A DNA stretch of 64,000 nucleotides from Limnochorda pilosa (GTDB taxonomy: Bacteria; Bacillota; Limnochordia; Limnochordales; Limnochordaceae). The first letter of the stretch is position 1; each line of letters starts with the position of its first letter. The position numbers and the translations under genes are program-made. Location: assembly GCF_001544015.1 (NCBI RefSeq), contig NZ_AP014924.1:2356001-2420000 (forward strand), given 5' to 3'. The notes beneath the pieces are model-generated. The model did no database searches and was not told the origin of the DNA. It worked only from the letters and a program-made list of their open reading frames with translations. This document shows positions 1,625 to 46,784 of this stretch, in pieces.

Positions 1625-2959
1625 CCTGGGGTTTTGACATAGGCCTTCCCGCAGTGTGGCGGAGCGGCGAGAAAAACCTCGAGTCGGCGCCAGTGGGAGG
1701 CAGGAATTCGGCGACGGGGCGTGAAGTTGTCGGAACACTCTCCGGCAGGTGGCAGGGAACGCAGGCCGTGGCCGATTCGAGCTGGCTCCGGAAAAGGAGA
1801 GGGCAGATGAAGCAGGCCCTTTCGAGCGCCTCGACTGGCAGGTCGCCGAGCGGGACGACGCCCGGCTCGCCCGTGCCGTCGCCGAGCACCGGGAGCTCGA
1901 TGCGGTCCACAACCTCGAGGAGGGTGGGCTTCTCGACGGCTTCATGGCCTTCCTCAGAGAGATCGGCTTCCTCGCCTACCTCGAGCGCCTGCGCCCCAGC
2001 CGCCGGGAGCGCTTCATGGTCGAGCCGCCTCCCTCATCCTTCTCACTCACATGATCAAGACGCTCCTGGGCATCGAGCACCTCTATGCGATGCCCGCCCT
2101 GCTCTTCAGCGACCCCTCAACCGTGAAGCTCATGGGCTTCAACGCCCGCTGGTTGGAAGAAGGGCTCAGCCGGCGATCTGAGGAGAAGCGAGGCGAGGAC
2201 AAGGAACGGCCGAAGCCCTTCAGCGCCCAGATGGTGGCCAACTTCCTCGCCGACCTGGTCCTCCGGGAGGCCGCGGCCTGCTTCAATCAGGCCATCCAGT
2301 GCCTGGCCCGCTTCGGTGTCTTCCCCCGGGAGGTTACCTTGGTGCTGGACGGGACCGACGTGGAGACAACCGGCAGGTGCCGGGGCGCCGGACGGGCGAA
2401 GCGGGAGAAGAAGGTGACCGATCGGGCGGGACGCCCGAAGGTTGTGGAGGTGCTGGTCTTCGGCTTCAAGGTGGTGGTAGCTTTCGATCTGGCCACCCAG
2501 ATCCCCGTTGCCGACATCGTCGTCAAGATCCAGCGCCACGAGACGCTCTGCACCCGCAGGCTGGTGCGCCAAGCCCAAAGCAACCTCTCGCCCGGCGGCG
2601 CCCGAGTCGCCAAGGTCCTCGTCGACCGGGGCTGCCTGGACGGTGCCACCCTTCACTGGCTCGACCAGCAGGGCATCGCCTTCGTCGTCCCGGCGAAGAA
2701 GAAGATGCTCGTCCACAGGCTCGCCTGCTCGGAGGCCCAGGGGAAGAAGGGCCACGTCCAGTCCCGGACCCGAACCGTCACCCACGGCCATGGCAAGCAC
2801 AAGATGGAGGCTGAGGCCTCTTCTCCTCTGGAAGCCCTCGCCCCAGGTTCCTCACGGCCGCGACCGTCTCGCCGGACTCCACCCTCGCCTTGCCACGCTC
2901 CCGTGCCACCCCTACCGGCCTTCCTGCTCCCAGCCGCTCTCCTATGTCAAAACCCCAGG
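1625..2959 (+). mobile_element. Insertion sequence with perfect 19-bp terminal inverted repeats, transposase damaged
   Basis: The left end CCTGGGGTTTTGACATAGG (1625-1643) is the exact reverse complement of the right end at 2941-2959. This defines a 1335-bp element. No target-site duplication is visible in the bases just outside (GCAC on the left, ATAT on the right), so either the duplication has decayed or the ends are not those of one insertion event. The only gene inside is a frameshifted and C-terminally truncated DDE transposase on the plus strand. The element is therefore probably immobile unless a related transposase acts on it in trans. Confidence 0.8.
1749..2820 (+). pseudogene. DDE transposase (IS4/IS5-like superfamily), frameshifted and truncated
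   Basis: The 5' part reads in one frame from 1749 (about 95 residues, including LEEGGLLDGFMAFLREIGF). The match then continues in another frame from about 2030 (LLTHMIKTLLGIEHLYAMPA, FNARW), so a frameshift lies near 2024-2030. The second frame carries the first catalytic aspartate in LVLDGTDVE and the second in KVLVDRGCLDG. Homology stops near 2820 after THGHGKHK, before the region that should hold the catalytic glutamate; the frame then runs on through unrelated sequence to 3262. The gene cannot make an active transposase. Family placement below the DDE superfamily level is uncertain. Confidence 0.75.
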
Positions 2960-3173: not shown

Positions 3174-6143
3174 CTACGCCACCCTTCCCCGCATCACCGA
3201 GTGCGCGCAGAACGTGCGGAAGTCGCACGATCCACACGTGGTCGGTCCGGGATTGGGGGTGAACCGGGCCGAGCGGATCCCGTCTACCCATTCCTCCAGC
3301 AGAGCCTCGAAAGCCCGCCGGCTGCCGTCGTCCTCCTCCACCCGCAGCCGACCGCCCTGGTCCACGTCCAGATCGTGAATGAAGAGCCCGACGGGGTCGT
3401 AGCCCAGCCGGCGGCAGGCGAGGCCGTAGAGGCGAAGCTGGTTCTGGTGGGCTTCGGAGGGCGGGCGGTTCTCGGAGGTCTTGAAGTCGACCAGTTCCAC
3501 CTGCAGGGGCTCCCCGCCCCGTTCCCCACGCTCCCCGTCCCGTTCCTCACGCCTCGCCTCCCGCCCTGCACCCTCCCCGTCCCTCCGCAGCAGGAGGTCC
3601 ACCCGCCCCCGGACCCGGGCGCCGCTCAGCGGGACCTCGAAACGCATCTCGGGCTGGAGGACCCGGCGGAGCTCCTGGCCGTGGCGTTCCATGTAGTGGG
3701 TGAGGCGACGGACGGCCGCCTGCTGGAGGCGCGCCCTGGGGATCGACCCTGCGAAGGGGAGGTAGAAGGACCGCGCCACGATGGAGGGCACGTCGGCCGC
3801 CCGCGGGGCCGCCCCCGCCAGGGTCCGGCGTCCCAGCTCGGCCACCGCGTGGTGGAGCAGCCGCCCGAAGCCCAGCTCCCGGGCCAGGACAGGCTGGAAG
3901 CCGCAGACCCGGCTCAGCCAGTAGCGGTACGCGCAGCCCTCGTAGAGGAGGAGGCTCGAGAAGTCCAGCACCAAGAGCTGGCGATCGCCGTGCACCGCCA
4001 CCGCCGCCGGATGGACGGAATGGAGCTGCTGCGCCGCCGAGAGGGCCTCGGCCAGGTAGAGGAGGAATCGGGAGGGCTTCGTCCTGCCGCCCTTCTCGTA
4101 CCGGGTGAACGTGCTCAGCACCAGGAGCTCGCGGGCCCGGGAGAGTGCCACGAAGAAGAGTCGGGCCTCGTCGTCCTCACGGCCCTCGTAACGAGCCCGG
4201 TCGAAGAGGGTCTCGGGCACGTACCAGACCTGCCGCTCCCCCATCCGGGCCGACGGGAACCGGCGCTCCACCAGCGACGGCACGAAGACGACGGGGAACT
4301 CGAGGCCCTTCGCCTGGTGGACGGTCATCACCTGCACCGCCTCGGCGGCGGTTGGGAGCGTGTCGGGGGTCTCCTCGGCCGCCCGGCCGACGAACGCCTC
4401 CAGGAAGGCCCTCAGGCGAGCCAGAAACACCTCGCCAGGAGGCAGGCCGAGGCGCACGGCCTTGCCCTCCCTCCCGTCTTCCCCGCCCTCTCCCCCGTTG
4501 TCTCCGCCCTCCCCCGCCTCGGCCTGAAGAAGCCGGTCCTCCTCCGCCTCCTGGGCCTCGACGGTCTCGTAGAGCCAGGCCGGGGCGGCCCGGCGGAGCG
4601 AGTGCTCGAAGGAGGTAAGCAGGGTCGACATGCGCCCAAGCCCCAACTCTTCGTGGGCCCGGCCCGCCCGGGGGAGGTCGAGGAGGGCGAGCAGCTGGTG
4701 GTAAAGGGCGATGAGGTCGCCCACGCCGCGGGTCCGGACCTGGTCCCCCAGGCCGGCCAGGCGAGTGACGAGGGCGGTTGCCTGCTCTGGCGCCATCCCC
4801 GTCACCCCGGCGACCTCGCCGGCCAGCTCCTCGGGGGTCACCGTCTCCGGGGCGGAGTGGGGATCGGGGCGCCAGGAGGCGGGCTCCAGGCCGGGCGTGG
4901 TCCAGAAGACGAAGATGCGGGCGACCAGGGCCATCTCGGGCCGAGAAAGGAGCGAGGTCTGCCCCACCACCGTCACGGGGATGCCCCGACGGCGCAGGGC
5001 GTTCACGAAGGGCCCGGCCGCGGTGCGCACCGAGCGCAGGAGGACGGCCACCTCGGCCGGACGGTGACCCTCGGCCAGGAGACGGTCGATGCGGCCGGCC
5101 ATCCGCTCGGCCTCGTCGGAGGGCGTTTCGGCCACGAAGAACTCCACGGACCCCGGCGGTAGCGGCTCCCGGTGCGTCCGGAGCTCCTTGGGGAGTCGCT
5201 CGCGCAGGCGGCCCGCCACGCCCGCCGCGGTGCGGACGATCTCGGGCCGGGAGCGGTAGTTGGTGGTCAGTTGGATGCGCTCGACCTCCGGGTGGCGCCC
5301 GTCGAAGTCGGTGAAGATCCGCACGTCGCCGCCCCGCCACTGGTAGATGGCCTGGTCGTCATCGCCGACGACGGTCACGGCGGCGCCGAGGTCCATGAGG
5401 TGGCGGAGGATCTCCTCCTGGGCCCGGTTGAAGTCCTGCGCCTCGTCCACCAGCACGTGCCGCACCCTGCCCTCCAGACGCCGGCGCAAGGGCCCGCCGG
5501 GAGCCAGGGCGTCGGCCGCGTGCCCGAGGAGCATGCGGAAGGGCAGGACGCGCATCTCGAGCAGCAAGCGCTCGTAGCGCTGCAGCACGGCCGCGAACTC
5601 GGGCGCCTGGCCCGCCAGGAGGCCGATGGGGATCCGCTCGTTGTGGACCACCTCGGCGCTGCGGAGGAAGCGCTCCACCGCCGGGCTCACCGCCACCTGC
5701 ACCTCGTCCCGATCCTCCGCCGCGGCGAAGAGCTCGAGCACGCCCAGCCGGCGCGCCACCCGTTGGAGCAGGCTCCACTCGGCGGCCTCGTCCAGCACGT
5801 CCACCAGCTCGTAGGGCGCCCCCATGGCCTTCAGCGCCTCCAGGGCCCACGCGTGGGTGGTTCCAACGAACATACCCCGGGAGACGGGCGGGAGCTCGGC
5901 GAAGCCGGGATCGGCCTCGGCCGCGCGCTCCTCGATGCGCTGCCGCAGCTCGCCGGCGGCCTTCTCGGTGAAGGTGAACGCGATGAGGCTTTCCGGCGGC
6001 ACGCCGTGCTCGGTCATGAGCCAGACGGAGCGGCGGGCCAGGACCTCGGTCTTCCCTGCCCCCGCCGACGCCACCACGTGGAGCCGCCGAGCCGGGTGCC
6101 GGATGGCTTCCTGCTGAACAGGGCTGAGCTGAGAACCCTTCAC
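3174..6143 (-). CDS. UvrD/Rep-family helicase with C-terminal Fe-S PD-(D/E)XK nuclease domain
   Basis: This 989-residue protein starts at GTG 6143 with AGGGAGGTG nine bases upstream; the frame extends further but into the preceding gene. Superfamily 1A motifs run in order: motif I ASAGAGKTEVLARR, Ia AFTFTEKAAGEL, II VDEAQDFNRAQ, III VVGDDDQAIYQWRGG, IV TTNYRSRPEI, V VMTVHQAKGLEFPVVFV and VI FFVALSRARELLVLS. The last 250 residues carry a RecB/AddB-like nuclease (GRVDLLL, then VDFKTSE, then HQNQLRLYGLA). A cysteine in LLYEGCAYRYW plus CGSCDFRTFC near the end match the four-cysteine Fe-S clasp of AddB and Cas4-type nucleases. It is a DNA-unwinding exonuclease candidate for repair or degradation. 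It starts 32 bp after the Ski2-like helicase gene, so the two are probably co-translated. Confidence 0.9.
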   Translation of the reverse strand: MKGSQLSPVQQEAIRHPARRLHVVASAGAGKTEVLARRSVWLMTEHGVPPESLIAFTFTEKAAGELRQRIEERAAEADPGFAELPPVSRGMFVGTTHAWALEALKAMGAPYELVDVLDEAAEWSLLQRVARRLGVLELFAAAEDRDEVQVAVSPAVERFLRSAEVVHNERIPIGLLAGQAPEFAAVLQRYERLLLEMRVLPFRMLLGHAADALAPGGPLRRRLEGRVRHVLVDEAQDFNRAQEEILRHLMDLGAAVTVVGDDDQAIYQWRGGDVRIFTDFDGRHPEVERIQLTTNYRSRPEIVRTAAGVAGRLRERLPKELRTHREPLPPGSVEFFVAETPSDEAERMAGRIDRLLAEGHRPAEVAVLLRSVRTAAGPFVNALRRRGIPVTVVGQTSLLSRPEMALVARIFVFWTTPGLEPASWRPDPHSAPETVTPEELAGEVAGVTGMAPEQATALVTRLAGLGDQVRTRGVGDLIALYHQLLALLDLPRAGRAHEELGLGRMSTLLTSFEHSLRRAAPAWLYETVEAQEAEEDRLLQAEAGEGGDNGGEGGEDGREGKAVRLGLPPGEVFLARLRAFLEAFVGRAAEETPDTLPTAAEAVQVMTVHQAKGLEFPVVFVPSLVERRFPSARMGERQVWYVPETLFDRARYEGREDDEARLFFVALSRARELLVLSTFTRYEKGGRTKPSRFLLYLAEALSAAQQLHSVHPAAVAVHGDRQLLVLDFSSLLLYEGCAYRYWLSRVCGFQPVLARELGFGRLLHHAVAELGRRTLAGAAPRAADVPSIVARSFYLPFAGSIPRARLQQAAVRRLTHYMERHGQELRRVLQPEMRFEVPLSGARVRGRVDLLLRRDGEGAGREARREERDGERGERGGEPLQVELVDFKTSENRPPSEAHQNQLRLYGLACRRLGYDPVGLFIHDLDVDQGGRLRVEEDDGSRRAFEALLEEWVDGIRSARFTPNPGPTTCGSCDFRTFCAHSVMRGRVA

Positions 6144-6175
6144 CGATCCGGCACCTCCCTTGCCGGGCTCGCCCC

Positions 6176-8572
6176 TCAGGGCTCCAGCGCTTCCGGCGCC
6201 ACCCGGAAGCGGGCCAGGAGCTCGTCCAGCTCGGTTTCGGCCTCCTCCTGGTCGGCAGCGGCCACCGCCCGGGCCCGCACGATCTCCTGGGCCCGCTCCA
6301 CCCACGGGGCCACGAGTCGAGCGGGCATCCGGCGGGGGTCGGCGAGGGCCTGGGGATCCGACGCAGCCAGCGCCTGGACGTCGGTGACGCCCCGCTCGTA
6401 GAGGAGCCGGGCGCGTGCCCGCCCGAGCTGGGGGAAGCGGAGGGCCATGAGCGGCACCAACTCGGGCCCGACGCCATACTCGACCGCCCCCGCCGCCTCC
6501 TTGGCCGCCCGGGCGACGGCCTCTTTTCCCAGCACCTCCGCCGCCCTCTGGTAGAGGCGCGCCACCCGGGCCAGGTCCTCCAGACGGCGCTCGAAATCAC
6601 CCCGGTAACGCTCCGGCAACCGGAAGCGTCCTAGCTCCACCTCATCCAGCCACGGGTCCAGCGCCTCCAGCCAGCGGGCCTCCTCCTTCTCGTCGGCGAA
6701 GAAGTCGATCACGGCCCAGCGGGCCACGTCGCGGCAGGTGGCCTGGTCCACGGTGTGGATCCGCGTCACCGCTTCGTGGACCAGCAGCAGGTCGAATCCC
6801 GAAGCCGAGGCCATCTCGCCCACGGGTGTCGCCCTCCATCCGGAGGGCGCCCGCTCGATGAGCGACCAGCGGGCCAGGAGGTCGATGGCCATGCTGAGCC
6901 GGGTGCCCAGGTCCAGGGTCCTGGTGAAGAGGTGGCCGCTGGTGTAGACCGCCCGGGCGTACACCTCGGGATCGGCCGCCCCGGGGGAAGCCGAGATGAG
7001 GGTGGCCAGGGCGCACGCCTGGTGCTTGCAGATCTGGTTGCGGAAGAACTTCTGCGCCGCGGGGCAGTCGCACTCGAGGCCCGCCACCGAGAGGGTCACG
7101 TGGTAATCGTGGTCCCCCGACCGCACCACGGCCCGAACGCCCGAGGGAACCGCCCTGGCCTCGACCAGCCGGAGCGAGCCGCCGGCCTTCACCACCTTCT
7201 CGTAGGCGGGGATGTCCTCCAGCAGGTCCTCGGTGAGGGTGCGGTCGAAATGGATGGGCTCCTGCCGCTGGTGGTGGGCTAGCGTGTGCCGGAAGGTCTC
7301 GGCGATGTCGTCGCGGGTGGTCTCGCCCCGCTCGACCACCGTGGAGAGAACGAAACGCATCAGCGCCTCGAAGCTGTCGGGCAGGCGACTCTGAACCTCC
7401 CCGCCCCGCCCCTTCTCGATGGCGGCGACCACTGCCTGAACCTCGGGGTCCTGCCGGTGCCGCTGGTCCAAGAGCGCCAGGCCCCGCCCCCGCCCCACCA
7501 GGCCCGGCCGGGCCGCACGCCCCATCATGTTCAGCAGCTCACCGCTCGAGAGCAGGACGTAGCGGAAACGGCCCCGGAAGGGCTCCGCCCGGAAGACGTC
7601 CCGTACCACCGCCACCTCGGCCGGCAGGTTGACGCCTGCGGCCAGGGTGGGCGTGGCCGCCAGCACCCGCAAGCGCCGGTCCCGGTAAGCGTCCTCCACC
7701 TGCTGGCGCAAAGAGCGGGAAAGCCCGGCGTGGTGGAAGGCCACCCCCGCCGGCACCACCTCCGCCAGGTCCCGGCCGGTTTCGTCGTCCTCGCCGCTGA
7801 GCCGGTCCGCCAGCTCGGCCAGCGCTTGCCGCTCCCGCTCCCCCAGCCGCTCGGCCACCAGCGGCGCGAGCCGGGAGGCAACCGCCTCCGCCCCCCGCCG
7901 GGAGCTGCAGAAGACCAGCGCCTGGGATCCTTCGTCCACCGCCTCGGCGACCAGCTGGCCCAGCGCGCCGTCCATGTCGGGAACCCACCGGCTCGCGAGC
8001 TCCAACTCCACCGGCCGATCCGCCGCCGACCCCAGGAGCAGCGGCACGCCCAGCCACCGGGCCAGCTCGTCTGCGTTCTCGACCACGGCCGAGAGGGCGA
8101 TGAGGGTCGGCGCCCTCCTCAGGTGGAGGAGGCGCGCCACCAGCCCCTCCACCGCCGGACCTCGCGTTTCGTCCGCCACCAGGTGGAACTCGTCGGCCAC
8201 CACCACCCCCGGCCGCAGCGCCGAGCGACGCAGGAGCCCGTCGAAGCTCTCGTACGTGGCGACCAGCAGGTCGCTCTCTTCGGGCCGGATCGCGTCGCGG
8301 TGGTCGCCCGTGGCGATGCGTATCCGGTACGTCGTCGCCTGAAGCTCGTCGAGAAAGCTCTCGTAGATTTCCCGGGCAAGGGCCCGAAAGGGAACCAGGT
8401 AGACCTGGGTGCGCCCGTCGCCCCGATCGAGCACGCGCCGGATCGCCGAGCGACCGATGAACGACTTCCCGGTCGCCGTGGGCGCGACCACGAGCCCGCT
8501 GGCCCCGTCCAGCAGCCCCATCTGCTCCGCCCGCTCGTACAGCGGGAAGCGCGCTCCGGCTCCCACACCCAC
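6176..8572 (-). CDS. Ski2/Hel308-like DEAD-box helicase with SWIM zinc motif
   Basis: The 798-residue protein has superfamily 2 helicase motifs: APTATGKSFIG (Walker A), VADEFHLV (motif II), ALSAVVEN (motif III), an AATPTLAAGVNLPA motif V and MMGRAARPG (motif VI). About residue 490 follows a SWIM zinc finger, ECDCP...NQICKH, of the C-x-C-xn-C-x-H type, which binds DNA or protein. Near the C terminus LRFPQLGRARARLLYERGV resembles a helix-hairpin-helix of the Hel308 type. The start is GTG 8572 or GTG 8566; the latter has better spacing to a GGGGGG ribosome site. It is the first gene of a pair with a UvrD-nuclease. A bacterial Ski2-like enzyme with a SWIM motif beside a helicase-nuclease suggests a DNA repair or defence role, which is inference. 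Confidence 0.88.
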   Translation of the reverse strand: MGVGAGARFPLYERAEQMGLLDGASGLVVAPTATGKSFIGRSAIRRVLDRGDGRTQVYLVPFRALAREIYESFLDELQATTYRIRIATGDHRDAIRPEESDLLVATYESFDGLLRRSALRPGVVVADEFHLVADETRGPAVEGLVARLLHLRRAPTLIALSAVVENADELARWLGVPLLLGSAADRPVELELASRWVPDMDGALGQLVAEAVDEGSQALVFCSSRRGAEAVASRLAPLVAERLGERERQALAELADRLSGEDDETGRDLAEVVPAGVAFHHAGLSRSLRQQVEDAYRDRRLRVLAATPTLAAGVNLPAEVAVVRDVFRAEPFRGRFRYVLLSSGELLNMMGRAARPGLVGRGRGLALLDQRHRQDPEVQAVVAAIEKGRGGEVQSRLPDSFEALMRFVLSTVVERGETTRDDIAETFRHTLAHHQRQEPIHFDRTLTEDLLEDIPAYEKVVKAGGSLRLVEARAVPSGVRAVVRSGDHDYHVTLSVAGLECDCPAAQKFFRNQICKHQACALATLISASPGAADPEVYARAVYTSGHLFTRTLDLGTRLSMAIDLLARWSLIERAPSGWRATPVGEMASASGFDLLLVHEAVTRIHTVDQATCRDVARWAVIDFFADEKEEARWLEALDPWLDEVELGRFRLPERYRGDFERRLEDLARVARLYQRAAEVLGKEAVARAAKEAAGAVEYGVGPELVPLMALRFPQLGRARARLLYERGVTDVQALAASDPQALADPRRMPARLVAPWVERAQEIVRARAVAAADQEEAETELDELLARFRVAPEALEP

Positions 8573-29937: not shown

Positions 29938-30003
29938 CTCCGGATGGAAGGTCCCTCGACGAAGAGCGTTCCCAGTTCGTGCGTCGTCTGTAGCGACGCG
30001 CTC

Positions 30004-31371
30004 CTATCTGGCTCCCCGCCCTGTGAGCATCACACGAATGGTCTTCAAGGCGATGGAAAGGTCGAGCCAGAAGGACACGTGCTTGACGTAGTAGAGGTCG
30101 TACTCAAGCTTCTCGGTGGTGTCTTCGAGTCCGGCTGCGTAGCCCTGCTGGACCTGGGCCCAGCCGGTGATTCCCGGCTTGACTCGGTGACGCCAGCTAT
30201 AGAACGGGATCTTCCGTTCGAACTCCCGGACAAAGGACACCTGCTCGGGCCTGGGGCCGATCAGACTCATCTCTCCCCGCAGCACGTTCCAGAGCTGGGG
30301 GAGCTCGTCCACCCGCAGGCGCCGGATCACACGGCCCACACGAGTGATTCGGTGGTCTCCATCGAGGGCGAAGCGCGCTCCGTCGCTCTCGGCGTCCACC
30401 CGCATCGAACGGAACTTCACGAGCCGGAAGACCTGGCCCCGCTGCCCGACCCGATCCTGCCAGAAGAGGAGGGGGCCGGCAGAATCCAGCTTGATCGCAA
30501 GGGCGGTCAGGAGGCAGATGGGCACGGTGACCGGCAGGGTGACCAGGACCGCCGCCACGTCGACAAAGCGCTTCAAGGGCAGGTACGTGGCCGGGCCGTT
30601 GAAGAGGTCCCCGACCCACCCGTCGCTGAGGTGGGACAGAGGGACACGCGTACTCGCCGTCTCGTAAACCGCGGCTGCATGGTAAACAGGGAGACCGCTG
30701 GCCGCGCACTCAGCAACGAACCGCTGCCACTCAGGCGGCAGGGCCTCGTGCATGTCCACCACCAGGCCGGCGACGGGCTCATGGAGCCGCGGGCCGCTCA
30801 AGGGCACAAGATCTAAGCCCGGCAAGACGGAGAGCTTGTCCATGATGCTGGAAGGCACTGCAGCCAAGCGGGTAGGGGATGTTCGGGGCCGCAAGAGGAG
30901 AATGTCGATCATCTGCCAGAGGAGAAGAACTACGAGGGAAACCAGCAGGAAGGAGCGGGAGTAATACGACCGGGCGAGGAGGACATAAGCCATCACGGCC
31001 CCGTAGACCGCCCCCACCCAGAGCGTGGCGGCTCGGAGTTGATCCATGGGGGTGCGGTTGGGCCGCCGGAGGAGCCATGCCTTACCAATGACGATCATGG
31101 CCCACAGCACGGCCACGTCAGGCCAGATGAGGCGCTGGCGCCACACTTCGACCGTGTACCATGCCGTATAGGAAGCCAGCATGATGGCGAGCACCGACGC
31201 GGTGCCGTCTCCCGCGATCCCGAGCACGTCGTAGAGCCACCGCTGACGCGCGTTTCGTGTGTACGTCATCCTCCTCGCCTCTGTTACGGGAGGGTAGCTC
31301 ACGTTCTGCCCCTCGCCTTCGTTCTGTTCCCGTATAGCAAGGAAATCTGGCACCCCGTACGACGGTTCCAT
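30004..31371 (-). CDS. Polyprenyl-phosphate sugar-1-phosphate transferase (initiating enzyme)
   Basis: The 455-residue protein has four to five N-terminal membrane helices (about residues 45-165), a linker and a C-terminal bacterial sugar transferase domain beginning PLKRFVDVAAVLVTLPVTV. Diagnostic motifs are KLDSAGPLLFWQDRVGQRGQ, FRLVKFRSMRVDAE, LRRLRVDELPQLWNVLRGEM and SLIGPRPEQ. It loads the first sugar phosphate onto undecaprenyl phosphate and so starts repeat-unit synthesis. A start at ATG 31269 is possible but its ribosome site is too close; ATG 31371 has AAGGAAA upstream. Confidence 0.92.
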   Translation of the reverse strand: MEPSYGVPDFLAIREQNEGEGQNVSYPPVTEARRMTYTRNARQRWLYDVLGIAGDGTASVLAIMLASYTAWYTVEVWRQRLIWPDVAVLWAMIVIGKAWLLRRPNRTPMDQLRAATLWVGAVYGAVMAYVLLARSYYSRSFLLVSLVVLLLWQMIDILLLRPRTSPTRLAAVPSSIMDKLSVLPGLDLVPLSGPRLHEPVAGLVVDMHEALPPEWQRFVAECAASGLPVYHAAAVYETASTRVPLSHLSDGWVGDLFNGPATYLPLKRFVDVAAVLVTLPVTVPICLLTALAIKLDSAGPLLFWQDRVGQRGQVFRLVKFRSMRVDAESDGARFALDGDHRITRVGRVIRRLRVDELPQLWNVLRGEMSLIGPRPEQVSFVREFERKIPFYSWRHRVKPGITGWAQVQQGYAAGLEDTTEKLEYDLYYVKHVSFWLDLSIALKTIRVMLTGRGAR

Positions 31372-31398
31372 TACACCCGGACATTTCCTTCACTCGGG

Positions 31399-32649
31399 TC
31401 AGCTTGGTGCTGCAACGTGAGCGCGGCCCATCATTGCCGCGCGCTCGATCTCTTCGACGTACCGCTCGACAGCCACATCAAGTGTCGCCTCGCGGTTCAC
31501 ATACTCAATCGCCTGGAGAGACATCTCTGAGTAGCGATCAGGATCTGCGGCTGCCTCGACGATTGAACGCGAGAACGCTTCAGCATCGCCGTGATCGACG
31601 CGATACCCAACCCCATGCGTAGCGATGATTCGCGCGACGTCGGACTCCGGGCCGAGAACTGCAATAAGAGGAAGCCCGGCGGCCAGTAGGTTATAGGTCT
31701 TGCTCGGGACTCCCAGGGCTTCCATGCCGGGCTCAAGGGTAATGAGCCCTAGGCTCGCGCGGCGCAACGTCTGGGTATACTCAGCATCTCTGAGGTACGG
31801 ACGAAACACCATGTTGCTCAATCCGCGATTACGAGCCTCATTCCGGAGCCAGATTGCTCGGGCACCATCGCCGGCAATCTCGAAGCGGATCGTTGAGTGA
31901 TCTCGGAGCCGCTCGGCGCCTTCGAGCAATGTGTGGAAATCCTGAAAGCGCCCGATGTTGCCGCTGTACAGCACGACGAACTCTCCATCAGAGGCTGGTG
32001 CCGTTCTTGGTTTTCCAAGACCCATCGTGGTCCAGTTTGGTATTACAGCAATCTTGCCCGAAGGAACCCCGTATTCTTGCACAAGAAAGTCCTTCATGCC
32101 ATCCCCCAACACGACAACGCGCTCAGACCTCTGGAGTGATCGTGCCTGAAGTCGACGAAGCGTGCGCGTGAATCGGGATTCACGCCTCCAAAGGCCCAGT
32201 GCGACCGGTACGTCAGGGTAAAGATCATGGATGAGGTACACGGTTGGTCTGCGAGCAGACCCAAGCAGGTTCAGCACCATAGGCATCAAAGGAGGGTTGG
32301 TCACCACGAAAAGCACATCATACTGCAGTAGTGCGGCTGACAGCGCTGCACTCGCTGAGAACACCAGGTCACTCGCCGCTCTTCGCGCAAATCCATCGCT
32401 CTGGGCGCGAAGCGTTCGGTACCGACGAATTCGGATGTCCTCCCATTCTTCTCGCCGCGGCAACGGGTTGTGGTTTGTGGCTCGGTATGGCCTCCGACCG
32501 GTAACCACATCTACCGTCCACGCCGGCCGACGCTGCTTGATGACAAGGAACAGCTCACCGAGGAGCCGCCCGGTTGAGGCTTCATCTGGGTAGAAGTACT
32601 CGGTGAGAAGAAGGACACGAAGACGGCTGACCAAGGCATTACACCCCAA
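31399..32649 (-). CDS. Family 4 glycosyltransferase (WbuB/fucosamine-type)
   Basis: The 416-residue GT-B protein begins LRVLLLTEYFYPDEASTG, the fingerprint of WbuB-like enzymes, and has YDVLFVVTNPPLMPMVLNLL and VYLIHDLYPDVPVALG. The donor half has VLYSGNIGRFQDFHTLLEGA, RPYLRDAEYTQTLRRASLGL and the C-terminal GVPSKTYNLLAAGLPLIAV, which holds the E/G-type nucleotide-binding region. It adds a sugar to the growing lipid-linked repeat in the cytoplasm. It lies 27 bp before the initiating transferase. Confidence 0.88.
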   Translation of the reverse strand: MGCNALVSRLRVLLLTEYFYPDEASTGRLLGELFLVIKQRRPAWTVDVVTGRRPYRATNHNPLPRREEWEDIRIRRYRTLRAQSDGFARRAASDLVFSASAALSAALLQYDVLFVVTNPPLMPMVLNLLGSARRPTVYLIHDLYPDVPVALGLWRRESRFTRTLRRLQARSLQRSERVVVLGDGMKDFLVQEYGVPSGKIAVIPNWTTMGLGKPRTAPASDGEFVVLYSGNIGRFQDFHTLLEGAERLRDHSTIRFEIAGDGARAIWLRNEARNRGLSNMVFRPYLRDAEYTQTLRRASLGLITLEPGMEALGVPSKTYNLLAAGLPLIAVLGPESDVARIIATHGVGYRVDHGDAEAFSRSIVEAAADPDRYSEMSLQAIEYVNREATLDVAVERYVEEIERAAMMGRAHVAAPS

Positions 32650-32856
32650 AGATCTGCAGTGTGCGTTTCAGCGTGTAGCCGTAACGGTAGATCGAGTACG
32701 CTTGCGCTCTACGATTGGACACCACCGGCCGAGCCCCAGCGGTCGCTACCACAGCTGATTTGCACTGCTTACTGGTTACGACTCTGATTCCATATGCCAT
32801 AGGCTCGGGGATAGCCTTGCTCTGCAGCCCTCTCCGTAGGAGAGGACGTGCACGGA

Positions 32857-33801
32857 TTACGCCATGTTTTGTACGAACCACTCGTACGTCTGCTCGATCC
32901 CCGTTCTCAAGGGAATCCGTGCCGACCAACCGAGCGCTCGAATTCGGTTCACATCCAGCAACTTCCTGGGCATCCCGTCCGGCTTTCTGGGATCGAAGAC
33001 TAGGTCTCCCTGATAGCCAACGACATTCTTGATCAGCTCGGCCAGTTCTCGAATGGAGATGTCCTCGCCGATGCCCACGTTGATCGGGACGGCGTCATCG
33101 TAGTGATCCAGCAGGAAGAGGGAGGCCTCGGCCAGGTCATCCACGTGCAGGAACTCCCGCCTCGGATTACCCGTACCCCAGACCTGCACCGTGGGGCTGC
33201 CATTCACCTTCGCCTCGTGCGTCTTGCGAAGAAGCGCGGCAAGTACGTGGCTGGTCTCGAGGTCGAAATTGTCGCCGGGGCCATAAAGGTTCGTGGGCAT
33301 CGCCGAGATGAAATGAGCTCCGTACTGGCGGCGATAAGAGTTCACCAGTTCGATGCCGGCGATCTTGGCGATGGCGTAAGGTTGGTTTGTGGGCTCCAGA
33401 GGACCGGTCAGTAGGTATTCTTCCTTAATAGGCTGCGGGGCGAGGCGGGGATAGATGCAACTGGATCCGAGGAAAAGGAGCTTCTTTACGCCGTGCTCAT
33501 GGGCGGCTCGTATCACGTTCAGCTCGATCTCGAGGTTCTCCTGGATGAAGTCTACCGGGTAGGTGTTGTTCGCCCAGATCCCGCCTACCTTTGCAGCGGC
33601 CAAGTACACGTACTCGGGTCGCTCGGAGGAGAAGAAGTCATCGACGTCCGGCTCACTTCGGAGGTCGAGCTCAGCACGGGTCCGCGTCAGGACATTCCGG
33701 TATCCCTGCCGTTCAAGTGCGCGTACGATCGCGCTGCCCACCAAGCCGCGATGGCCCGCAACGAAGATCCGTGCATCGAGCGGCACCATGTCCCCAGACA
33801 C
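32857..33801 (-). CDS. fcl: GDP-L-fucose synthase, copy 1
   Basis: The 314-residue SDR enzyme has [20 protein letters not shown] (NADP site), [20 protein letters not shown] with the catalytic Ser and Cys, [14 protein letters not shown] with Tyr-x3-Lys, and [20 protein letters not shown]. It converts GDP-4-keto-6-deoxymannose to GDP-L-fucose. The start is GTG 33801, inside the 3' end of gmd. The product is close to full length and intact, unlike the damaged gmd upstream of it. A second copy lies at 49529. Confidence 0.95.
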
Positions 33802-34837
33802 TAGCGATCCCCCTCAGCGGCACGCTGTGGCCGTTCTCGCGGAGCACCCGCTCCTGACGAGCCAGCTCCAGGTCCTGCTCCACCATCCGCTCGATAAGCT
33901 CCTCGAACGTAACCTGAGGCTGCCAGCCGAGCTTCTTGCGGGCTTTGGAAGCATCACCACACAGGGCATCCACCTCCGCTGGGCGGAAGTAACGCGGGTC
34001 GATCGCAACGTACTCGCGCCAGTCGAGGTCGAGCCGGTCGAAAACACGCTCGACGAACTCTCGGACCGAGTGTATCTGGCCGGTTGCAATCACGTAGTCG
34101 TCCGGCTCGTCCTGCTGAAGCATCAACCACATGGCCTCGACGTAGTCTGCAGCGTAGCCCCAATCACGCTTCGCGTCCAGATTGCCAAGGAAGAGCTTGT
34201 CCTGCAATCCCAGCTTGATCCGGGTCGCTGCCCGCGTGATCTTGCGCGTAACGAACGTCTCGCCCCGCCGCTCAGATTCGTGGTTGAAAAGAATGCCGTT
34301 GCAGGCGAAGAGGTCATACGCCTCCCGGTAGTTCACCGTTTGCCAGTAAGCGTAGACCTTCGCTACTGCATACGGCGAGCGCGGGTGGAAAGGCGTGCCC
34401 TCGGACTGGGGGGGAGGCGACGAACCGAACATCTCCGAGGACCCCGCCTGGTAGAACCGAACCTCGCGCCCTGTAGATGGGTACGCGCGTATCGCCTCTA
34501 GGACCCGCAAGGTTCCCAGCGCGTCCACGTCCGCAGTGTACTCCGGCTGGTGGAAGGACACCTTCACGTGCGACTGCGCGCCAAGATTGTACACCTCATC
34601 GGGCTCGACCTGTTCGAGGAGCGCCCGGAAACCGCTTCCGTCGCTGAGGTCCCCATAGTGAAGAAAGAGCCTCGCACCGGGATCGTGTGGGTCCTGGTAG
34701 AGGTGGTCGATGCGGTCCGTGTTGAACGAGCTCGACCGCCGAAGAACACCATGCACCTCGTACCCTTTCGCCAGCAGCAATTCGGTCAGGAACGAACCGT
34801 CCTGACCAGTGATGCCTGTGATCAGCGCCTTCTTCGT
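33713..34837 (-). CDS. gmd: GDP-mannose 4,6-dehydratase, copy 1, start and stop codons altered
   Basis: The frame carries the whole enzyme, from [20 protein letters not shown] to [13 protein letters not shown], with [16 protein letters not shown] and [13 protein letters not shown] (Tyr-x3-Lys). Two codons differ from copy 2 at 51533. The position of its ATG reads ACG here (34837), and no ATG, GTG or TTG lies between the upstream in-frame TGA (34858) and the Rossmann motif. The copy 2 stop TGA reads TGG here, so the frame runs 75 bp further into fcl. A TTG at 34780 would remove the nucleotide site. Either translation starts at a non-standard codon or this copy is silent. A point-mutated pseudogene is a fair alternative. 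Confidence 0.8.
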
Positions 34838-35011
34838 GCCGCAACTCGTAAGCCTTCACTCCTCCCCTGTGCTCTGCTGTGTACGACGTCGCGTCCTGAT
34901 CGCCGTGGTCCTCCCCAAACCACCAGCCTGCCCAAGTACGTCCCGCGGCCCTCATCTTGGCCGGAACACGAGAGTGACTTTCGTCGTTCGCATTTCCCGC
35001 TAACGCCTCTC

Positions 35012-36040
35012 CTACACCCAATCGAATCGTCCCATAAGCTCGCGTTTCCGCCGGAGCCAGTCGCGTTCTGCGAGAAACATCGAGCTCACAACTGGCCATA
35101 GCGGCACACGGCCACTCATCGCCCTGAATACCATCGCAGCCCAGGCTCCCAGGTGGCCCCACCAAAAGCTCACCGTGAAGTACACTCCCCTGCGCCCATG
35201 TTTCGCCACAAGGTAGTGGTGATTGTAAAGGTACGCATACGCGTAACGAGAGACATCTGGGCGCCCCCCAGGAGCGTGATGGTGCACCAGAACCGCATTG
35301 GGTTGATAAAGAAGCAGGTGGTTCCGTGAAAGTGTCGCTGGAAGGTCTAGGTCTTCCCATAGGTGCGTGCGCCCCAACTCTTCGTCGTACTGAAACGATT
35401 CGAGCACGTTCCGGCGGTACGACGCGCATCCCATTAGGAGACGAACTCGAACCGGGACGTCGACGCGCCGATCAAACGGCATCGCTGGAAAACCTGAGGG
35501 GAGGAAATCACCCCTGCCGTTATCGTGGTTTAGGAGAAACACGCGGCGGATCATCCGTAACACGACAGGCCATCTAGCCTGAGCATCGATCACCTTGCCC
35601 CCAACTCCCACGACACCGCGGTTCAGACGGAACGTAGCGTCGATTTCATCGACGTATGCTGGGTCCAACTCAACGTCGTCATCCAAGAAGTGGACGATAT
35701 CGCAGTTAGCATGCTTTGCTCCAAGATTCTTTTGCAGCGAAGCATTACAGCCATCTGACTCAACGACCTTCAATGCAAAGGGATTCTTCGTAGACCCAAG
35801 GGCGCGCTTGATCCCGACCGCGTCGCGACAGGGCACAACTATTACCTCTTCCGGCACGAGGCGCTGCCTTGCTATAGAAGCCATACACTCAAGCAGCGGC
35901 TCCACGCGCCCCACAGTCGGAATGACTATGGAGTGTGTTAGGCGATCACTCTCGCGCGCATTCTCCGTGACAGATCCCGATGTTACCACCGCACGACGCC
36001 CTCTTCCTTGCACATGCCGCACATAGACGAGGCGATTCAC
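35012..36040 (-). CDS. Family 2 glycosyltransferase
   Basis: The 342-residue protein has a GT-A domain: THSIVIPTVGRVEPLLECMA, EEVIVVPCRDAVG, NASLQKNLGAKHANCDIVHF and LDDDVELDPAYVDEID (D-x-D). The acceptor part contains RTHLWEDLDLPATLSRN, the ED motif typical of the catalytic base, then a C-terminal amphipathic segment (FTVSFWWGHLGAWAAMVFRA) that may hold it at the membrane. It belongs to the polysaccharide operon, between the GT4 gene and gmd copy 1. Its base composition is lower in GC than the flanks, as in most of this locus, consistent with transfer. Confidence 0.87.
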   Translation of the reverse strand: MNRLVYVRHVQGRGRRAVVTSGSVTENARESDRLTHSIVIPTVGRVEPLLECMASIARQRLVPEEVIVVPCRDAVGIKRALGSTKNPFALKVVESDGCNASLQKNLGAKHANCDIVHFLDDDVELDPAYVDEIDATFRLNRGVVGVGGKVIDAQARWPVVLRMIRRVFLLNHDNGRGDFLPSGFPAMPFDRRVDVPVRVRLLMGCASYRRNVLESFQYDEELGRTHLWEDLDLPATLSRNHLLLYQPNAVLVHHHAPGGRPDVSRYAYAYLYNHHYLVAKHGRRGVYFTVSFWWGHLGAWAAMVFRAMSGRVPLWPVVSSMFLAERDWLRRKRELMGRFDWV

Positions 36041-36090
36041 ACCAGCTCGTCACTGACCTGCCCCGATGGCCCGACATACGATCACCGTGC

Positions 36091-37251
36091 TCAGCTTTGA
36101 AACGCCCTTGAAACTCGCGCATTGTGGGCCTCCCGAGCCAGAGCCAGGGCCTCCCAGATCTTTGCTGCATACGTGGCAGGCGTATGAGCCTTACCCCATG
36201 CTGTAATTGACTCACGGTCGAGCCCAGCTCTGACTCGCTCAGTCGCATGAGTGAGCGCCCTTCGAAAATCCACCTCGTCATCCGGATCGAACGCCCTGCC
36301 AACATCGGTCGGTGCCAGCTCAATGAGGTCATGGGTTGCGCCTGCTCGCTTGGAAGCCAACACGTACAGACCCGCTGCCAACGCCTCATTTACAACCAGC
36401 CCCCACACTTCGAGCAGCGACGGCATCACGAGAACGTCTGCCTGGGCATAGTGCTCCGCAAGCTCTTCCAAAGTCCTTGAAGAACCCGCGAAGCGAACAT
36501 TCACGTCACCATGTGAAGCCATTGAACGAAGCTCCGCCTCCAATGACCCGTACCCCACCAAAGTCAGGCGTCCGAGAGAGGGCGAAGCATCTGTGAATAT
36601 CCTCAATAGTTCGCGCACGCCTTTTCGTTCGATAAACTGTCCCACGTAAAGAAATCGGGTTTCCTGTACTGCACCTTCGGTTGTGAGCTGGCCTCGCCTC
36701 CGGTGTACTAGGCAAGCAAGCGTCTCCGTGTTAACGGTGTTTGTTCCCGTCACAACGCGAGCCGGGTCAAATCCCAGGCCGATCACCTGTTGGCTCGCCA
36801 GATGACCATAAGTTACAACGGAATCGACCAAGCGCAGCGCCAGTCGTCGAAGCCCGGTCATGACTCTGCCTCTGGAGCGACTACTTAGGCTGTGGCTACC
36901 CCACCAGAGCGTTAACGGAAGGCGTTGGTGCGTTGCATAAAGCATGCCAGTCCAATGATTCGGCGTAACGTAACCGTCAACCAGCACCTGAGTGGGGCCA
37001 ACTTCCTCTAGTGCATGCCAGAGTCCTGGGCTGAGGTAGATTCCCCAGTCCCGTCGACGAACGAAGGTGCTAAGACCTGGCACTATGTGGATATACAAAC
37101 CAGGCCACCCCTGGCTTGACACCTGCTGAATGCGAGTTGGGTCTCGTCCTGTAGGGGCAAAGACATGAAACTCTCCGCACAGGCTGGCTAGCCTCTCATA
37201 CGTTGGAAGACGGTTTGGTGTAAGGGCACCGGTGACAAGGGCCACCTGCAT
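36091..37251 (-). CDS. Family 4 glycosyltransferase
   Basis: The 386-residue GT-B enzyme starts MQVALVTGALTPNRLPTYER. The N-terminal acceptor domain includes VDGYVTPNHWTGMLYATHQR and the donor domain has TRFLYVGQFIERKGVRELLR, LVGYGSLEAELRSMASHGDV, FAGSSRTLEELAEHYAQADV and LVMPSLLEVWGLVVNEALAA, where the E-x7-E motif of GT4 enzymes (EVWGLVVNE) contacts the nucleotide sugar. It precedes the GT2 gene at 36040 by 50 bp. The sugar specificity cannot be read. Confidence 0.9.
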   Translation of the reverse strand: MQVALVTGALTPNRLPTYERLASLCGEFHVFAPTGRDPTRIQQVSSQGWPGLYIHIVPGLSTFVRRRDWGIYLSPGLWHALEEVGPTQVLVDGYVTPNHWTGMLYATHQRLPLTLWWGSHSLSSRSRGRVMTGLRRLALRLVDSVVTYGHLASQQVIGLGFDPARVVTGTNTVNTETLACLVHRRRGQLTTEGAVQETRFLYVGQFIERKGVRELLRIFTDASPSLGRLTLVGYGSLEAELRSMASHGDVNVRFAGSSRTLEELAEHYAQADVLVMPSLLEVWGLVVNEALAAGLYVLASKRAGATHDLIELAPTDVGRAFDPDDEVDFRRALTHATERVRAGLDRESITAWGKAHTPATYAAKIWEALALAREAHNARVSRAFQS

Positions 37252-37349
37252 TTTGAAGGAACGCCACCTTTCGATCTCCCACGGGTATCACGCGAGATTC
37301 TGCGCGGGAACCCTTCTACAAGAAATGCGAAAGTGCCCGAGAAAGTATT

Positions 37350-38480
37350 CTATGAGTAACGTGAACGAAAGGGGCACCTTCTGGGCCGACTATTCGACAA
37401 CATCGCCCCTGATGTCCTTCCCGGGCCCCGCGGATCGAGGAACGCCTCGGCAAACACGGTCTCATGGTTCAGTCCGTCGAACCTGTTGGTGGACCTCTTC
37501 GAGCACGTCGGGCTGTCCCGAAGCCTGGAGCGTCGCCACCACCACCAAAGTGTCTGTGAGCCGCCGACCTTCGGACCACCGAAGTGGTGGAGTACCTGAT
37601 CCTGGAAGCCGTGTTGGGGATAGGCCGCATCATCGAGACCACCGAGCTGAAGCACGACCCGTTCCTGGCCGGCAGGATACGACTGAAGAAGCTGCCCCAC
37701 CCAGCAACCGGGCACCGGGCGCTGGATCGCTTCGTGGCGCAACTGGAGGGCGTCCACCAGGGCACGCCGGCGGTTGGGCGTGGCCATCCCGGACATCGAC
37801 GACACCGTGGAGGCGGCCCACGCTCACCAGGAGGGCGCATGCGCGGGCTACAACCAGCGCTAACGTGGCAGGCCTGCCTGCCGCCCTTCGTCGCCTTCGA
37901 AGGGCAGAGCCGGGCGCTGTTGTAGGCTGCTCTGCGCTCGGGCAAAACCCCAAAGGCCTGGGAGCTTATCCGCCTCTGCCGCCGAGCCATGAAGCAGATC
38001 CCAGAGGGCCGTCGGGCTCGCTTTGTCCAAGGGAACGTTTAGGCACGGACGCGCTACTGGACGAGCTGGAAGCAGACGACATCCGGACGAGAGTCGATGT
38101 AGGCTACGCCCGCAAACTGAGGCTGAACCGGCGCCTCCAGAGCCCGGCCTTCAAGCGTACCCTGGGGACGAGGGCGTGCGAGCCCCGACGAGACCATGAT
38201 CGAGGTCGTTTCGCTTACCTGCCAGGCCCGCACCCGCAAAGGCAGCAAGTGGGTCGTCTTCATCCTGTGCCCAAAGGGCATCCGAGCGCTGCTTTCAGAC
38301 TGCTCGGCTTCTGCCCTCCGAGGCGTCTACCCAGGGTGATACCGGACGATCGTCATCAACGAACACTGGCACGACCACCCCCTGACCTAACGCGGCGGCG
38401 GGCCTGCCGATCAGATTCCACAAGCCTCGGGACATCCTTCAGGGGTTCGTGGCGCGGCGCACCACGCGGTCTTCTTCAAG
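37350..38480 (+). pseudogene. Decayed IS1380-family transposase
   Basis: The plus strand follows the intact IS1380 transposase at 58056 piece by piece but in changing frames: AACGAAAGGGGCACCTTC (37364-), the NLLVDLFEHVGL-like segment, then VVEYLILEAVLGIGRIIETT (37584-), GHRALDRF, and fragments near 37870 and 38040. Several frameshifts, stop codons and deletions make it inactive. No clear terminal repeats are left. It splits the polysaccharide locus between the polymerase and the GT4 gene, on the strand opposite to the operon. Confidence 0.85.
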
Positions 38481-39126
38481 GCTCTCTCAAGCTTGCCCCT
38501 CACAAGCGGCTTTCACCCCCGCCGCATAACCCTCCACCATGCCCCCAACTCTCTCTGGCTGTCTTGCGCCAGGCCATGCTTACCCCGGCCTTCACGAGAC
38601 GCGCTGCGATCTTCAGGTCAAGCACCCTGTTACCGAAGGCGGCATGCTTCTCCAGCACATCGCTCCGCTCGGCTTCCTGCTGCCGCAAGGGCAGACCAGA
38701 CAGCTTCTCTCGTTCACCCGGTGGTACGCAACTACTTTCGTCACGTAGCGAACTTCCGCTACCAAGCCTTTCATCAACCCAGTGCCCGCCTTGACATCTC
38801 CGACGAAGGATAGTGCGACTGAGGAGCCAAACACTCCCCATGCCGCTACGTGCTCCGACGCTAAGGAGTGGTGCCAGCCTTCCCCGCTGGATGTACGACA
38901 GATGGCGCGTAGGCGCTCTGATACGCCCTCAACCACCTCACAATTGCGAGGTGCCAGGCCAGCTGTGCTCTGGTCTACGATCACGACGCCCTCCGCTGCG
39001 TATTACTGAGAAGCAACGAACTCTAGCATGCCCTTGAGTGACGCGGGGCGGTTCTTCGTGGCCACAAACAGGCAGATTCTCGGCCTTGAGCACCTCGTCC
39101 TCACGCGCTAGCCCCTTCTAGCAGGC
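38481..39126. other. Region without a recognisable gene
   Basis: Two overlapping minus-strand frames (38500-38841 and 38613-38984) share residues of uneven composition and suggest an old gene broken by a frameshift (REKLSGLPLRQQEAERSDVL with LDLKIAARLVKAGVSMAW). I cannot assign a family. The plus strand shows nothing coherent. It is probably debris beside the IS1380 remnant. Confidence 0.35.
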
Positions 39127-40446: not shown

Positions 40447-40731
40447 GCCTGTGTCTCCCCCTGTGAGACCAACTGAGGGATGCCTCTTGCAATCTGGCCG
40501 CTTGAGGCCGCTTGAGACCGTCCCCATCCTTTCCCATGCATGCGGCTCTCCCACGCTCAGAGTACTATGAGGGACTCCGCGCCCAGAGGGCACCCGCCCG
40601 GCGCTTCCGCCGCCCTTCGGCTTGGTCTGTCGGGACAGTGCGGAATGTGCGTTTCACCAGTGCCGTTGCGTCACTTTGCGAAGCCCTAGGGTAACGCCCA
40701 CCGGCTAGGTTACACGGCTCGTCGCCTCGCA

Positions 40732-40803
40732 CGCTTACTACTGGTGAGCCTTACTCGCTTACTACTGGTGAGCCTTACTCGCTTACTACTGGTGAGCCTT
40801 ACT
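40732..40803. repeat. Three perfect tandem copies of a 24-bp unit
   Basis: The units 40732-40755, 40756-40779 and 40780-40803 are identical and begin CGCTTACTACTGG. On the minus strand each encodes SKAHQ followed by two stop codons, and the third unit forms the C terminus and stop of the glycosyltransferase gene at 40786. The other two lie just downstream as a duplicated gene end. Slipped-strand duplication explains it. Confidence 0.95.
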
Positions 40804-41667: not shown

Positions 41668-41781
41668 TCTACTTAACCCCTTCGACCACCGTTCGATAAA
41701 CTGGTTCCATCACCGCGCGTCTCCTCCTGCCAGTGTGAGGATCAGCTTCGAAAACGGTTTCAACGCCCGTGGGACTGACAA

Positions 41782-42723: not shown

Positions 42724-42765
42724 CGCTCACTTCCCGGTGGTGCATAGCATGCTCAGTAAGTGGTA

Positions 42766-43887: not shown

Positions 43888-43915
43888 GGGAGCCGACCCC
43901 GTCAGAGTTTGCATG

Positions 43916-45421: not shown

Positions 45422-45434
45422 TCTTCACGCCTTC

Positions 45435-46415: not shown

Positions 46416-46784
46416 GACGACGCCCCGCTCCTTCTTGGACTGCGGCTCTTGGTCTTTATCGGTACAGGTTCCTTTGTTTGGAGCGCGCGGCACACAATTT
46501 TAGGTGTTACGGCATGATGCTGGGCTTGTCCTGCTACCGCAAAGTAACGAGTGGACGCCAATCGGCGCCATCCTGCGGGGAGGGTTACCCTTTCCCGGCC
46601 CCACCGCGCGATCCCCCAATGGATAGAACCGCCGATTCGCCCCGGAATTCGCGGTGCGTCCTGCCCATTCATGCCGATTTTCATGGGTCTCTGGCCCGTC
46701 GACATCCAGATCGTTCCAGGGTACACTCCGATACGAGTGCGGTTACACTCTTGTGGTAGCCTTTCCTGCAAAGGGGTGTGCCCG

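What the first reader, a model, noticed from the sequence alone, without database searches (positions are those of the whole stretch)
3174..8572. Ski2-like SWIM helicase paired with a UvrD-type Fe-S nuclease
Seen: a superfamily 2 helicase with a SWIM zinc motif and a Hel308-like end is followed after 32 bp by a superfamily 1 helicase with an AddB/Cas4-like four-cysteine nuclease domain. Known: AddAB and RecBCD combine helicase and nuclease for end processing, and Hel308 acts on stalled forks. A bacterial operon that joins both kinds with a SWIM motif is unusual and could be a repair or anti-plasmid machine.
Basis: partly seen in the sequence, partly recalled or inferred. Interest (0 to 1): 0.58.

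Follow-up and report, generated by a model that had tools for sequence, protein, structure and literature searches.

The report
Bacterial Hel308-SWIM helicase with nuclease partner
Two neighbouring bacterial genes make a DNA-unwinding enzyme of a kind usually said to be missing from bacteria and a second motor fused to a DNA-cutting domain, and the pair seems to travel together between unrelated bacteria as a small DNA-repair or anti-invader machine.

Summary
Window 8572-6176 (-) encodes a 798-aa SF2 helicase. Its closest solved relatives are archaeal Hel308, matched over both the motor/winged-helix part and the C-terminal ratchet/HhH part, with a SWIM-type CxCx11CxH motif between them. After 32 bp, 6143-3174 (-) encodes a 989-aa UvrD motor fused to a four-cysteine PD-(D/E)XK nuclease. 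The second protein is not a stray AddA or AddB: the genome has a separate AddAB-type pair, and in a tree it lies inside the UvrD-Cas4 fusion family (99/99) described in 2017 next to type III restriction-modification and Dcm/Vsr genes. The pair is rare and patchy. I found seven loci. Three carry both genes intact and adjacent; in the other four both are damaged, or the helicase is broken and the nuclease gene is absent. Apart from same-genus decayed loci, essentially only these two genes are shared between loci. One intact copy, on a Chloroflexi MAG contig, is 74% identical although the PcrA proteins of the two genomes are 49% identical. I read it as a horizontally moved helicase-nuclease module, somewhat more likely defensive than house-keeping. 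The parts are known; the combination was not found in my literature searches.

The parts
6176..8572 (-). Hel308-class SF2 helicase with SWIM-type motif (798 aa, P0001); GTG start as read mechanically
7022..7072 (-). SWIM-type zinc-binding motif C501-x-C503-x11-C515-x-H517, between the winged-helix part and the ratchet/HhH part
   Evidence: motif read and conserved; Pfam SWIM below cut-off; coordinates computed from residue numbers 501-517
6338..6655 (-). Hel308-like ratchet / helix-hairpin-helix C-terminal part (residues 640-745)
   Evidence: profile match to 2zj2 residues 578-682, 36 bits; HHH_5 19 bits
6144..6175 (-). 32-bp intergenic gap
3174..6143 (-). UvrD (SF1A) helicase fused to a four-cysteine PD-(D/E)XK nuclease, UvrD-Cas4 fusion family (989 aa, P0002)
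3177..3998 (-). Cas4/AddB-like nuclease region (about residues 716-989) with C737, C970, C973, C979, D849, D886, K888, Q902
   Evidence: coordinates computed from residue numbers
1625..2959 (+). IS element next to the pair: perfect 19-bp terminal inverted repeats and a DDE_Tnp_1 transposase frame starting at 2051; probably not part of the system

Best explanation
A two-gene helicase-nuclease module that moves horizontally and acts on branched or broken DNA. Shown by sequence: the first gene is a Hel308-class 3'-5'-type SF2 motor with a SWIM-type zinc motif inserted between its winged-helix and ratchet parts; the second is a UvrD-type SF1 motor fused to an Fe-S PD-(D/E)XK nuclease of the Cas4/AddB type; the two are inherited, kept and lost together. 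Inferred: the two proteins form one machine. The Hel308-class protein recognises a fork, flap or ssDNA/dsDNA junction (the SWIM motif adding DNA or partner binding), opens the duplex and exposes a single strand. UvrD-Cas4 loads on that strand, translocates and degrades it. The most likely use is defence against incoming or replicating foreign DNA, with host forks as the risk that would explain frequent decay.
For: Hel308 is the best solved match of the first gene: 280 bits in two stretches, against 80 bits for HamB with the same profile. The second gene sits in the UvrD-Cas4 clade, 99/99, with intact catalytic residues and cysteines. Relatives of that clade sampled here lie by type III-like Mod/Res genes (L180) or by a Dcm-type methylase and a HhH-GPD glycosylase (L183), the kinds of context that PMC5704561 section 8 reads as defence. 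Co-inheritance: essentially the only shared genes between loci of different genera are these two; three of seven loci have both intact; in G196, G258 and G668 the helicase is broken and no UvrD-Cas4 ortholog was found in the genome, best hits being partial 33% UvrD/PcrA-like matches or none. Patchiness: 2 of 72 in the class, 5 of 398 and 4 of 299 in overlapping phylum samples, 1 of 301 in the phylum of L044's genome. Transfer: L044 is 74% identical while PcrA of the two genomes is 49% identical. Purifying selection in intact pairs: dN 0.21-0.42 against dS 0.83-1.60. The broken copy in G196 lies beside a GajA/GajB-like pair.
Against: No functional data. The window's own neighbours are not a defence island: IS element, RidA-type gene, SelA-like enzyme, kinase- and transporter-type genes (the kinase and transporter labels are my reading of the translations). 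Only one of seven loci lies beside a recognisable defence pair, and that copy is broken. Archaeal Hel308 and HELQ are repair and recombination enzymes (PMC10484726, abstract and passages), so a repair role is the default by homology. A complex between the two proteins was not modelled, and the helicase model was too poor to use (pLDDT 46). Most carriers are draft assemblies, so some 'decay' may be assembly error; G258 and G668 are one genus and count as about one event.
Confidence: 0.5

Rival explanations
1. An accessory DNA-repair module: the Hel308-class motor clears or remodels stalled forks and UvrD-Cas4 resects the exposed strand, as a lineage-specific supplement to AddAB.
For: Hel308/HELQ are repair helicases (PMC10484726). 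The AddAB-type pair is present beside it, which fits a supplementary role. PMC5704561 section 8 itself allows redundancy with RecB-type repair and notes a non-defence UvrD/Cas4 operon in Clostridiales. The three intact pairs sit in unremarkable surroundings.
Against: Absent from 70 of 72 class genomes and broken in four of seven loci, which is unlike core repair genes; apparent transfer to a distant genome.
Confidence: 0.36
2. A relative of Hachiman (HamAB) in which the nuclease partner was exchanged for UvrD-Cas4: the Ski2/Hel308-like protein is a genome-integrity sensor and releases or activates the nuclease.
For: HamB models are the best PADLOC matches, 141 bits; Hachiman is a helicase-nuclease pair that senses DNA damage, and its authors note the likeness of HamB to Hel308 (PMC12278908, abstract and passages).
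Against: Much closer to Hel308 (280 bits) than to HamB (80 bits) with one profile. The partner is UvrD-Cas4, which carries its own motor, and HamA was not among the matches shown for it.
Confidence: 0.08
3. The UvrD protein is simply this genome's diverged AddA or AddB and the helicase is an unrelated neighbour.
For: It has a RecB/AddB-type nuclease with an Fe-S cysteine pattern.
Against: A separate AddAB-type pair exists at G000:C1 about 871,860-878,505 (L042); the tree separates AddA (97/95) from the clade that holds P0002 (99/99); adjacency is kept in L044 and L038.
Confidence: 0.02
4. A degenerating mobile remnant with no present function in this genome.
For: Four of seven loci are decayed and an IS element lies about 215 bp beyond the UvrD stop.
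Against: Both window frames are complete, keep all motifs and evolve under purifying selection relative to L044 and L038.
Confidence: 0.04

Closest known systems
Hel308 / Hjm / HELQ (Ski2-like SF2 DNA helicases of archaea and metazoa)
   Same: RecA1, RecA2 and winged-helix part aligned over residues 9-446 and ratchet/HhH part over 640-745; motif IVa AFHHAGL present (motif as given in PMC10484726).
   Different: In bacteria; carries a SWIM-type motif and roughly 70 extra residues between winged helix and ratchet; scores 314 bits or less against NCBIfam Hel308-type equivalogs with cut-offs of 887-1216. PMC12278908 states Hel308 is absent in bacteria (passage).
UvrD-Cas4 fusion proteins (pfam12705 branch, Hudaiberdiev et al. 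2017, PMC5704561; first author's name recalled)
   Same: UvrD motor plus four-cysteine PDDEXK_1 nuclease in one chain; one clade with fusions next to type III-like or Dcm genes.
   Different: Forms its own branch (100/100) in that clade and its constant neighbour is a Hel308-class helicase, a context not described in section 8 of that paper.
AddAB / AdnAB / RecBCD
   Same: SF1 motor plus RecB-type nuclease; AddB-like Fe-S pattern; AdnB, AddA and RecB are found by the fold search after UvrD, PcrA and Rep.
   Different: Single UvrD-Cas4 chain paired with an SF2 motor; a separate AddAB-type pair is present.
Hachiman (HamAB)
   Same: Two-gene helicase-nuclease system with a Ski2-like helicase (PMC12278908).
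   Different: Different nuclease partner with its own motor; the helicase is closer to Hel308 than to HamB.

Membership tests
Hel308 | SF2 core plus winged helix colinear with archaeal Hel308 | tested here: met
   profile match 9-446 to 2zj2 25-453, 242 bits
Hel308 | ratchet and C-terminal HhH part | tested here: met
   profile match 640-745 to 2zj2 578-682, 36 bits, weak but colinear; HHH_5 in 3 of 5 members at E <= 0.1; structure model unusable
Hel308 | curated equivalog score | tested here: not met
   314, 235, 234 and 232 bits against cut-offs 887, 1200, 1216 and 891; hence 'Hel308-class', not filed as Hel308
Hel308 | 3'-5' DNA unwinding of forks | not testable with these tools
   needs biochemistry
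SWIM zinc finger | CxCx(n)CxH motif | tested here: met
   present in 6 of 7 loci; L041, a decayed copy, has CKQ
SWIM zinc finger | Pfam PF04434 gathering score | tested here: not met
   13.2 against 19.6 bits; 2 of 5 members at E <= 0.1
UvrD-Cas4 fusion family | UvrD motor fused to pfam12705 nuclease with four cysteines | tested here: met
UvrD-Cas4 fusion family | helicase domains form one clade | tested here: met
   99/99 for 7 rows (3 pair, 4 fusion; one of the four, L139, is cut off by its contig end before the nuclease) in an 18-row tree; small sample, whole-chain columns filled in at least 80% of rows
UvrD-Cas4 fusion family | type III RM or Dcm/Vsr neighbours | tested here: not met
   window neighbours are an IS element, XRE regulators, a RidA-type and a SelA-like gene
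AddAB | P0002 groups with AddA, or genome lacks another AddAB | tested here: not met
Hachiman | HamA nuclease partner next to HamB | tested here: not met
   partner is UvrD-Cas4; HamA not among the 25 of 55 PADLOC matches shown for it; upstream neighbour is a RidA-type gene

The most novel reading that the evidence does not exclude
A new two-gene immune system: a bacterial Hel308-class SWIM helicase recognises replicating or branched foreign DNA and feeds it to a UvrD-Cas4 motor-nuclease. This would make Hel308 the sensor in an anti-phage or anti-plasmid machine and UvrD-Cas4 an exchangeable effector shared with type III RM and Dcm-linked systems.
Probability: 0.4. Interest if true: 0.68.

Novelty: new variant of a known kind. 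Interest (0 to 1): 0.52.

Why it matters
A 2024 paper says in passing that Hel308 is absent in bacteria; here is a Hel308-class protein, with both its motor and ratchet/HhH parts, encoded in a one-contig bacterial genome and in several draft ones. It gives UvrD-Cas4, a predicted defence nuclease family, a third kind of partner and a compact two-gene form that can be expressed and assayed. The tie between integrity of the helicase gene and presence of the nuclease gene makes a functional link directly testable.

Tried and rejected
Diverged AddAB was rejected by the tree and by the separate AddAB-type pair. Hachiman proper was rejected because the partner is not HamA and the helicase is closer to Hel308. 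Gabija was rejected for the pair itself: GajB models match the UvrD motor and the neighbour is not GajA; a Gabija-like pair does lie beside the broken copy in G196.

A viral origin found no support: the viral-contig scan with A1 gave one weak match, 28% over 112 residues; the scan with A2 gave only distant UvrD-type proteins, 22-43% in the best segment. No plasmid or phage record covers 80% of the helicase, and no plasmid record covers 80% of the UvrD protein. I looked at haloarchaeal and other plasmid neighbourhoods for a split version of the pair; one Halorussus plasmid has a DEAD/DEAH helicase near separate PD-(D/E)XK and UvrD genes, which I did not pursue.

The AlphaFold model of the helicase was poor (46 mean pLDDT) and was not used. 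The UvrD model is good only in the motor (68 mean); the Foldseek result shows UvrD, PcrA and Rep first and AdnB, AddA and RecB next. The promoter scan found nothing. Large genome samples scored only the best 2-3 candidates per genome, and the tool warns that the empty answer for the phylum of L045's genome shows nothing by itself.

Full report
What is there. The window is bases 2,356,001-2,420,000 of a one-contig genome of 3,817,036 bases. I believe this is Limnochorda pilosa from its size and G+C; that name is recalled and comes from no call. The upstream gene ends at 6176 and the downstream GTG is at 6143, a 32-bp gap.

The helicase. With a five-member profile (A1) the best solved structure is 2zj2 ('putative ski2-type helicase'; that this is Pyrococcus Hel308/Hjm is recalled), 280 bits, in two colinear stretches: residues 9-446 (motor and winged helix) and 640-745 (ratchet and helix-hairpin-helix). 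Two chains labelled Hel308 follow at 250 and 241 bits; HamB scores 80 bits with the same profile. NCBIfam's best four models are Hel308-type helicases, all far below their cut-offs. The motif AFHHAGL, described as motif IVa in PMC10484726 (abstract and passages read; conserved also in Ski2 and RecQ helicases by that paper), is present. Between the two Hel308-like stretches lies CDC-x11-CKH. The spacing 446-640 in this protein against 453-578 in 2zj2 implies roughly 70 extra residues there. Pfam's SWIM model is below its cut-off, so the SWIM assignment rests on the motif and its conservation: 6 of 7 loci keep it, the exception being the decayed L041. [quoted passage not shown]

The nuclease partner. 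P0002 has UvrD motor domains and PDDEXK_1. C737, C970, C973 and C979, and D849, D886, K888 and Q902, are invariant in the four pair proteins and present in the fusion proteins of L180, L183 and L184. In an 18-row tree P0002 and its two intact orthologs (100/100) lie within a clade (99/99) with four relatives from other contexts: L180 on an Athalassotoga plasmid, followed by a DNA methyltransferase and a DEAD/DEAH helicase; L183 near a cytosine-5 methylase and a HhH-GPD glycosylase; L184; and L139, a second, contig-truncated UvrD relative in G012. AddA-type and PcrA-type proteins fall outside. This is the UvrD-Cas4 fusion family of PMC5704561 (section 8 read whole; passages of other sections), whose authors infer defence roles from type III RM and Dcm/Vsr contexts. 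The tree is small, and its alignment flagged odd letter make-up for two rows, P0002 among them.

AddAB. The genome has an AddA-like protein of 1170 aa and, overlapping just upstream, a 1046-aa protein with PDDEXK_1 at 115 bits and an Fe-S cysteine pattern (L042). The AddA models are below cut-off (265 against 708 bits) and no NCBIfam model hits the AddB-like protein at 1e-10, so I call it AddAB-type by arrangement and by tree (AddA clade 97/95). Similar arrangements were seen in G012, G196, G060 and G258; none was recognised in the stretch of G348 examined.

Distribution. Full-length matches to the helicase occur in 2 of 60 relatives (the other 58 give only short matches at E >= 1e-16), 2 of 72 genomes of the class, 4 of 299 and 5 of 398 of overlapping phylum samples (these counts include broken copies), 3 of 17 in the class of G060, 1 of 7 in the class of G196, 1 of 301 in the phylum of L044's genome and 0 of 299 in the phylum of L045's genome. 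Counts include the query genome or the centre genome where it was drawn. P0002 orthologs: in the phylum sample 4 of 299 genomes match at E <= 1e-50, of which G000 and G060 are orthologs and G241 and G285 are the more distant fusions.

Seven loci. Intact adjacent pairs: window, L044 (74% and 65%) and L038 (57% and 54%). L039 in G060: helicase residues up to 653 abut UvrD residues from 85 in another frame, as if one deletion had removed the junction, and the UvrD frame has one internal TGA. L040 in G196: the helicase is spread over three frames. L041 in G258: the helicase match ends just after the SWIM region. G668: two helicase pieces on two contigs. Genome-wide, the P0002 query finds orthologs in G348, G012 and G060 only. 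In G196 and G668 the best are partial 33% matches (G196's is its PcrA), and G258 has none at 1e-30. So where the nuclease gene is missing the helicase gene is broken (3 of 3 genomes, two of them one genus), and both complete helicase genes outside the window have a complete partner. Assembly errors in drafts may inflate the decay.

Mobility. Apart from the same-genus loci L041, L191 and L192, only the two genes (and frames overlapping them) are shared among flanks of different loci, with one exception: L040 shares a weak small-protein match, 25-27%, with the G668 loci (ORFs of 80 aa or more; L038 has little flank). PcrA is 49% identical between G000 and G348 while the helicase is 74% identical. 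A mis-binned contig in that MAG would also explain this; G+C (0.70 for L044, 0.68 for its PcrA locus) does not decide. Intact pairs evolve under purifying selection. The broken copy in G196 lies near a GajA/GajB-like pair and an AlbA-domain protein; L044 has an ISL3 transposase and an AlbA-domain protein roughly 4-7 kb beyond its UvrD gene; in the window an IS element with perfect 19-bp ends lies about 215 bp downstream.

Mechanism. Shown by sequence: two complete motors, one nuclease with its catalytic and cysteine residues, and shared inheritance. Inferred: complex formation, loading of UvrD-Cas4 on strand exposed by the Hel308-class motor, the role of the SWIM motif, and use in defence. I give defence 0.5 and repair 0.36.

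Literature. My searches for 'Hel308' with 'SWIM zinc finger' or 'SWIM domain', and for 'SWIM zinc finger' with 'phage defense' and 'helicase', found no paper. 'UvrD-Cas4' is in one paper only, PMC5704561. 'Hel308-like' with 'bacteria' gave six papers, seen as listings only, none on bacterial Hel308 by title or abstract start. The library holds open-licence PMC papers only, so absence there is weak evidence.

Noticed in passing
window 55347-56972 (-): 541-aa AAA protein matching Pfam ORC-CDC6-like (54 bits, cut-off 27), unexpected to me on a bacterial chromosome; next to a stretch whose G+C falls to 0.555 (56-58 kb).
   Followed up: no
window about 30000-46500: Mostly low-G+C stretch (0.58-0.63 against about 0.67-0.73 at 2-22 kb); the three genes checked are a sugar transferase, a glycosyltransferase and an O-antigen ligase, suggesting an exopolysaccharide locus.
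   Followed up: partly
window 1625-2959: IS element with perfect 19-bp terminal inverted repeats and a DDE_Tnp_1 transposase frame, directly beyond the UvrD-Cas4 gene and next to two XRE-type regulators (693-1459).
   Followed up: partly
L183:7675-13619 (G241): UvrD-Cas4 fusion near a cytosine-5 methylase and a HhH-GPD glycosylase with an Fe-S motif: a variant of the published Dcm/Vsr context with a glycosylase in place of Vsr.
   Followed up: partly
L191 and L192 (G668): The two contigs carrying the helicase pieces share nearly identical 5' ends (91-98% protein identity over the first 1.1 kb), so a repeated element may lie at the break.
   Followed up: no
L175:5858-15221 (Halorussus plasmid): DEAD/DEAH helicase near separate PD-(D/E)XK, UvrD, 3'-5' exonuclease and second PD-(D/E)XK genes: possibly a split, archaeal counterpart.
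   Followed up: no
L172 and L173 (plasmids), L041: NYN-domain genes lie near Ski2-like helicase genes in three unrelated records.
   Followed up: no
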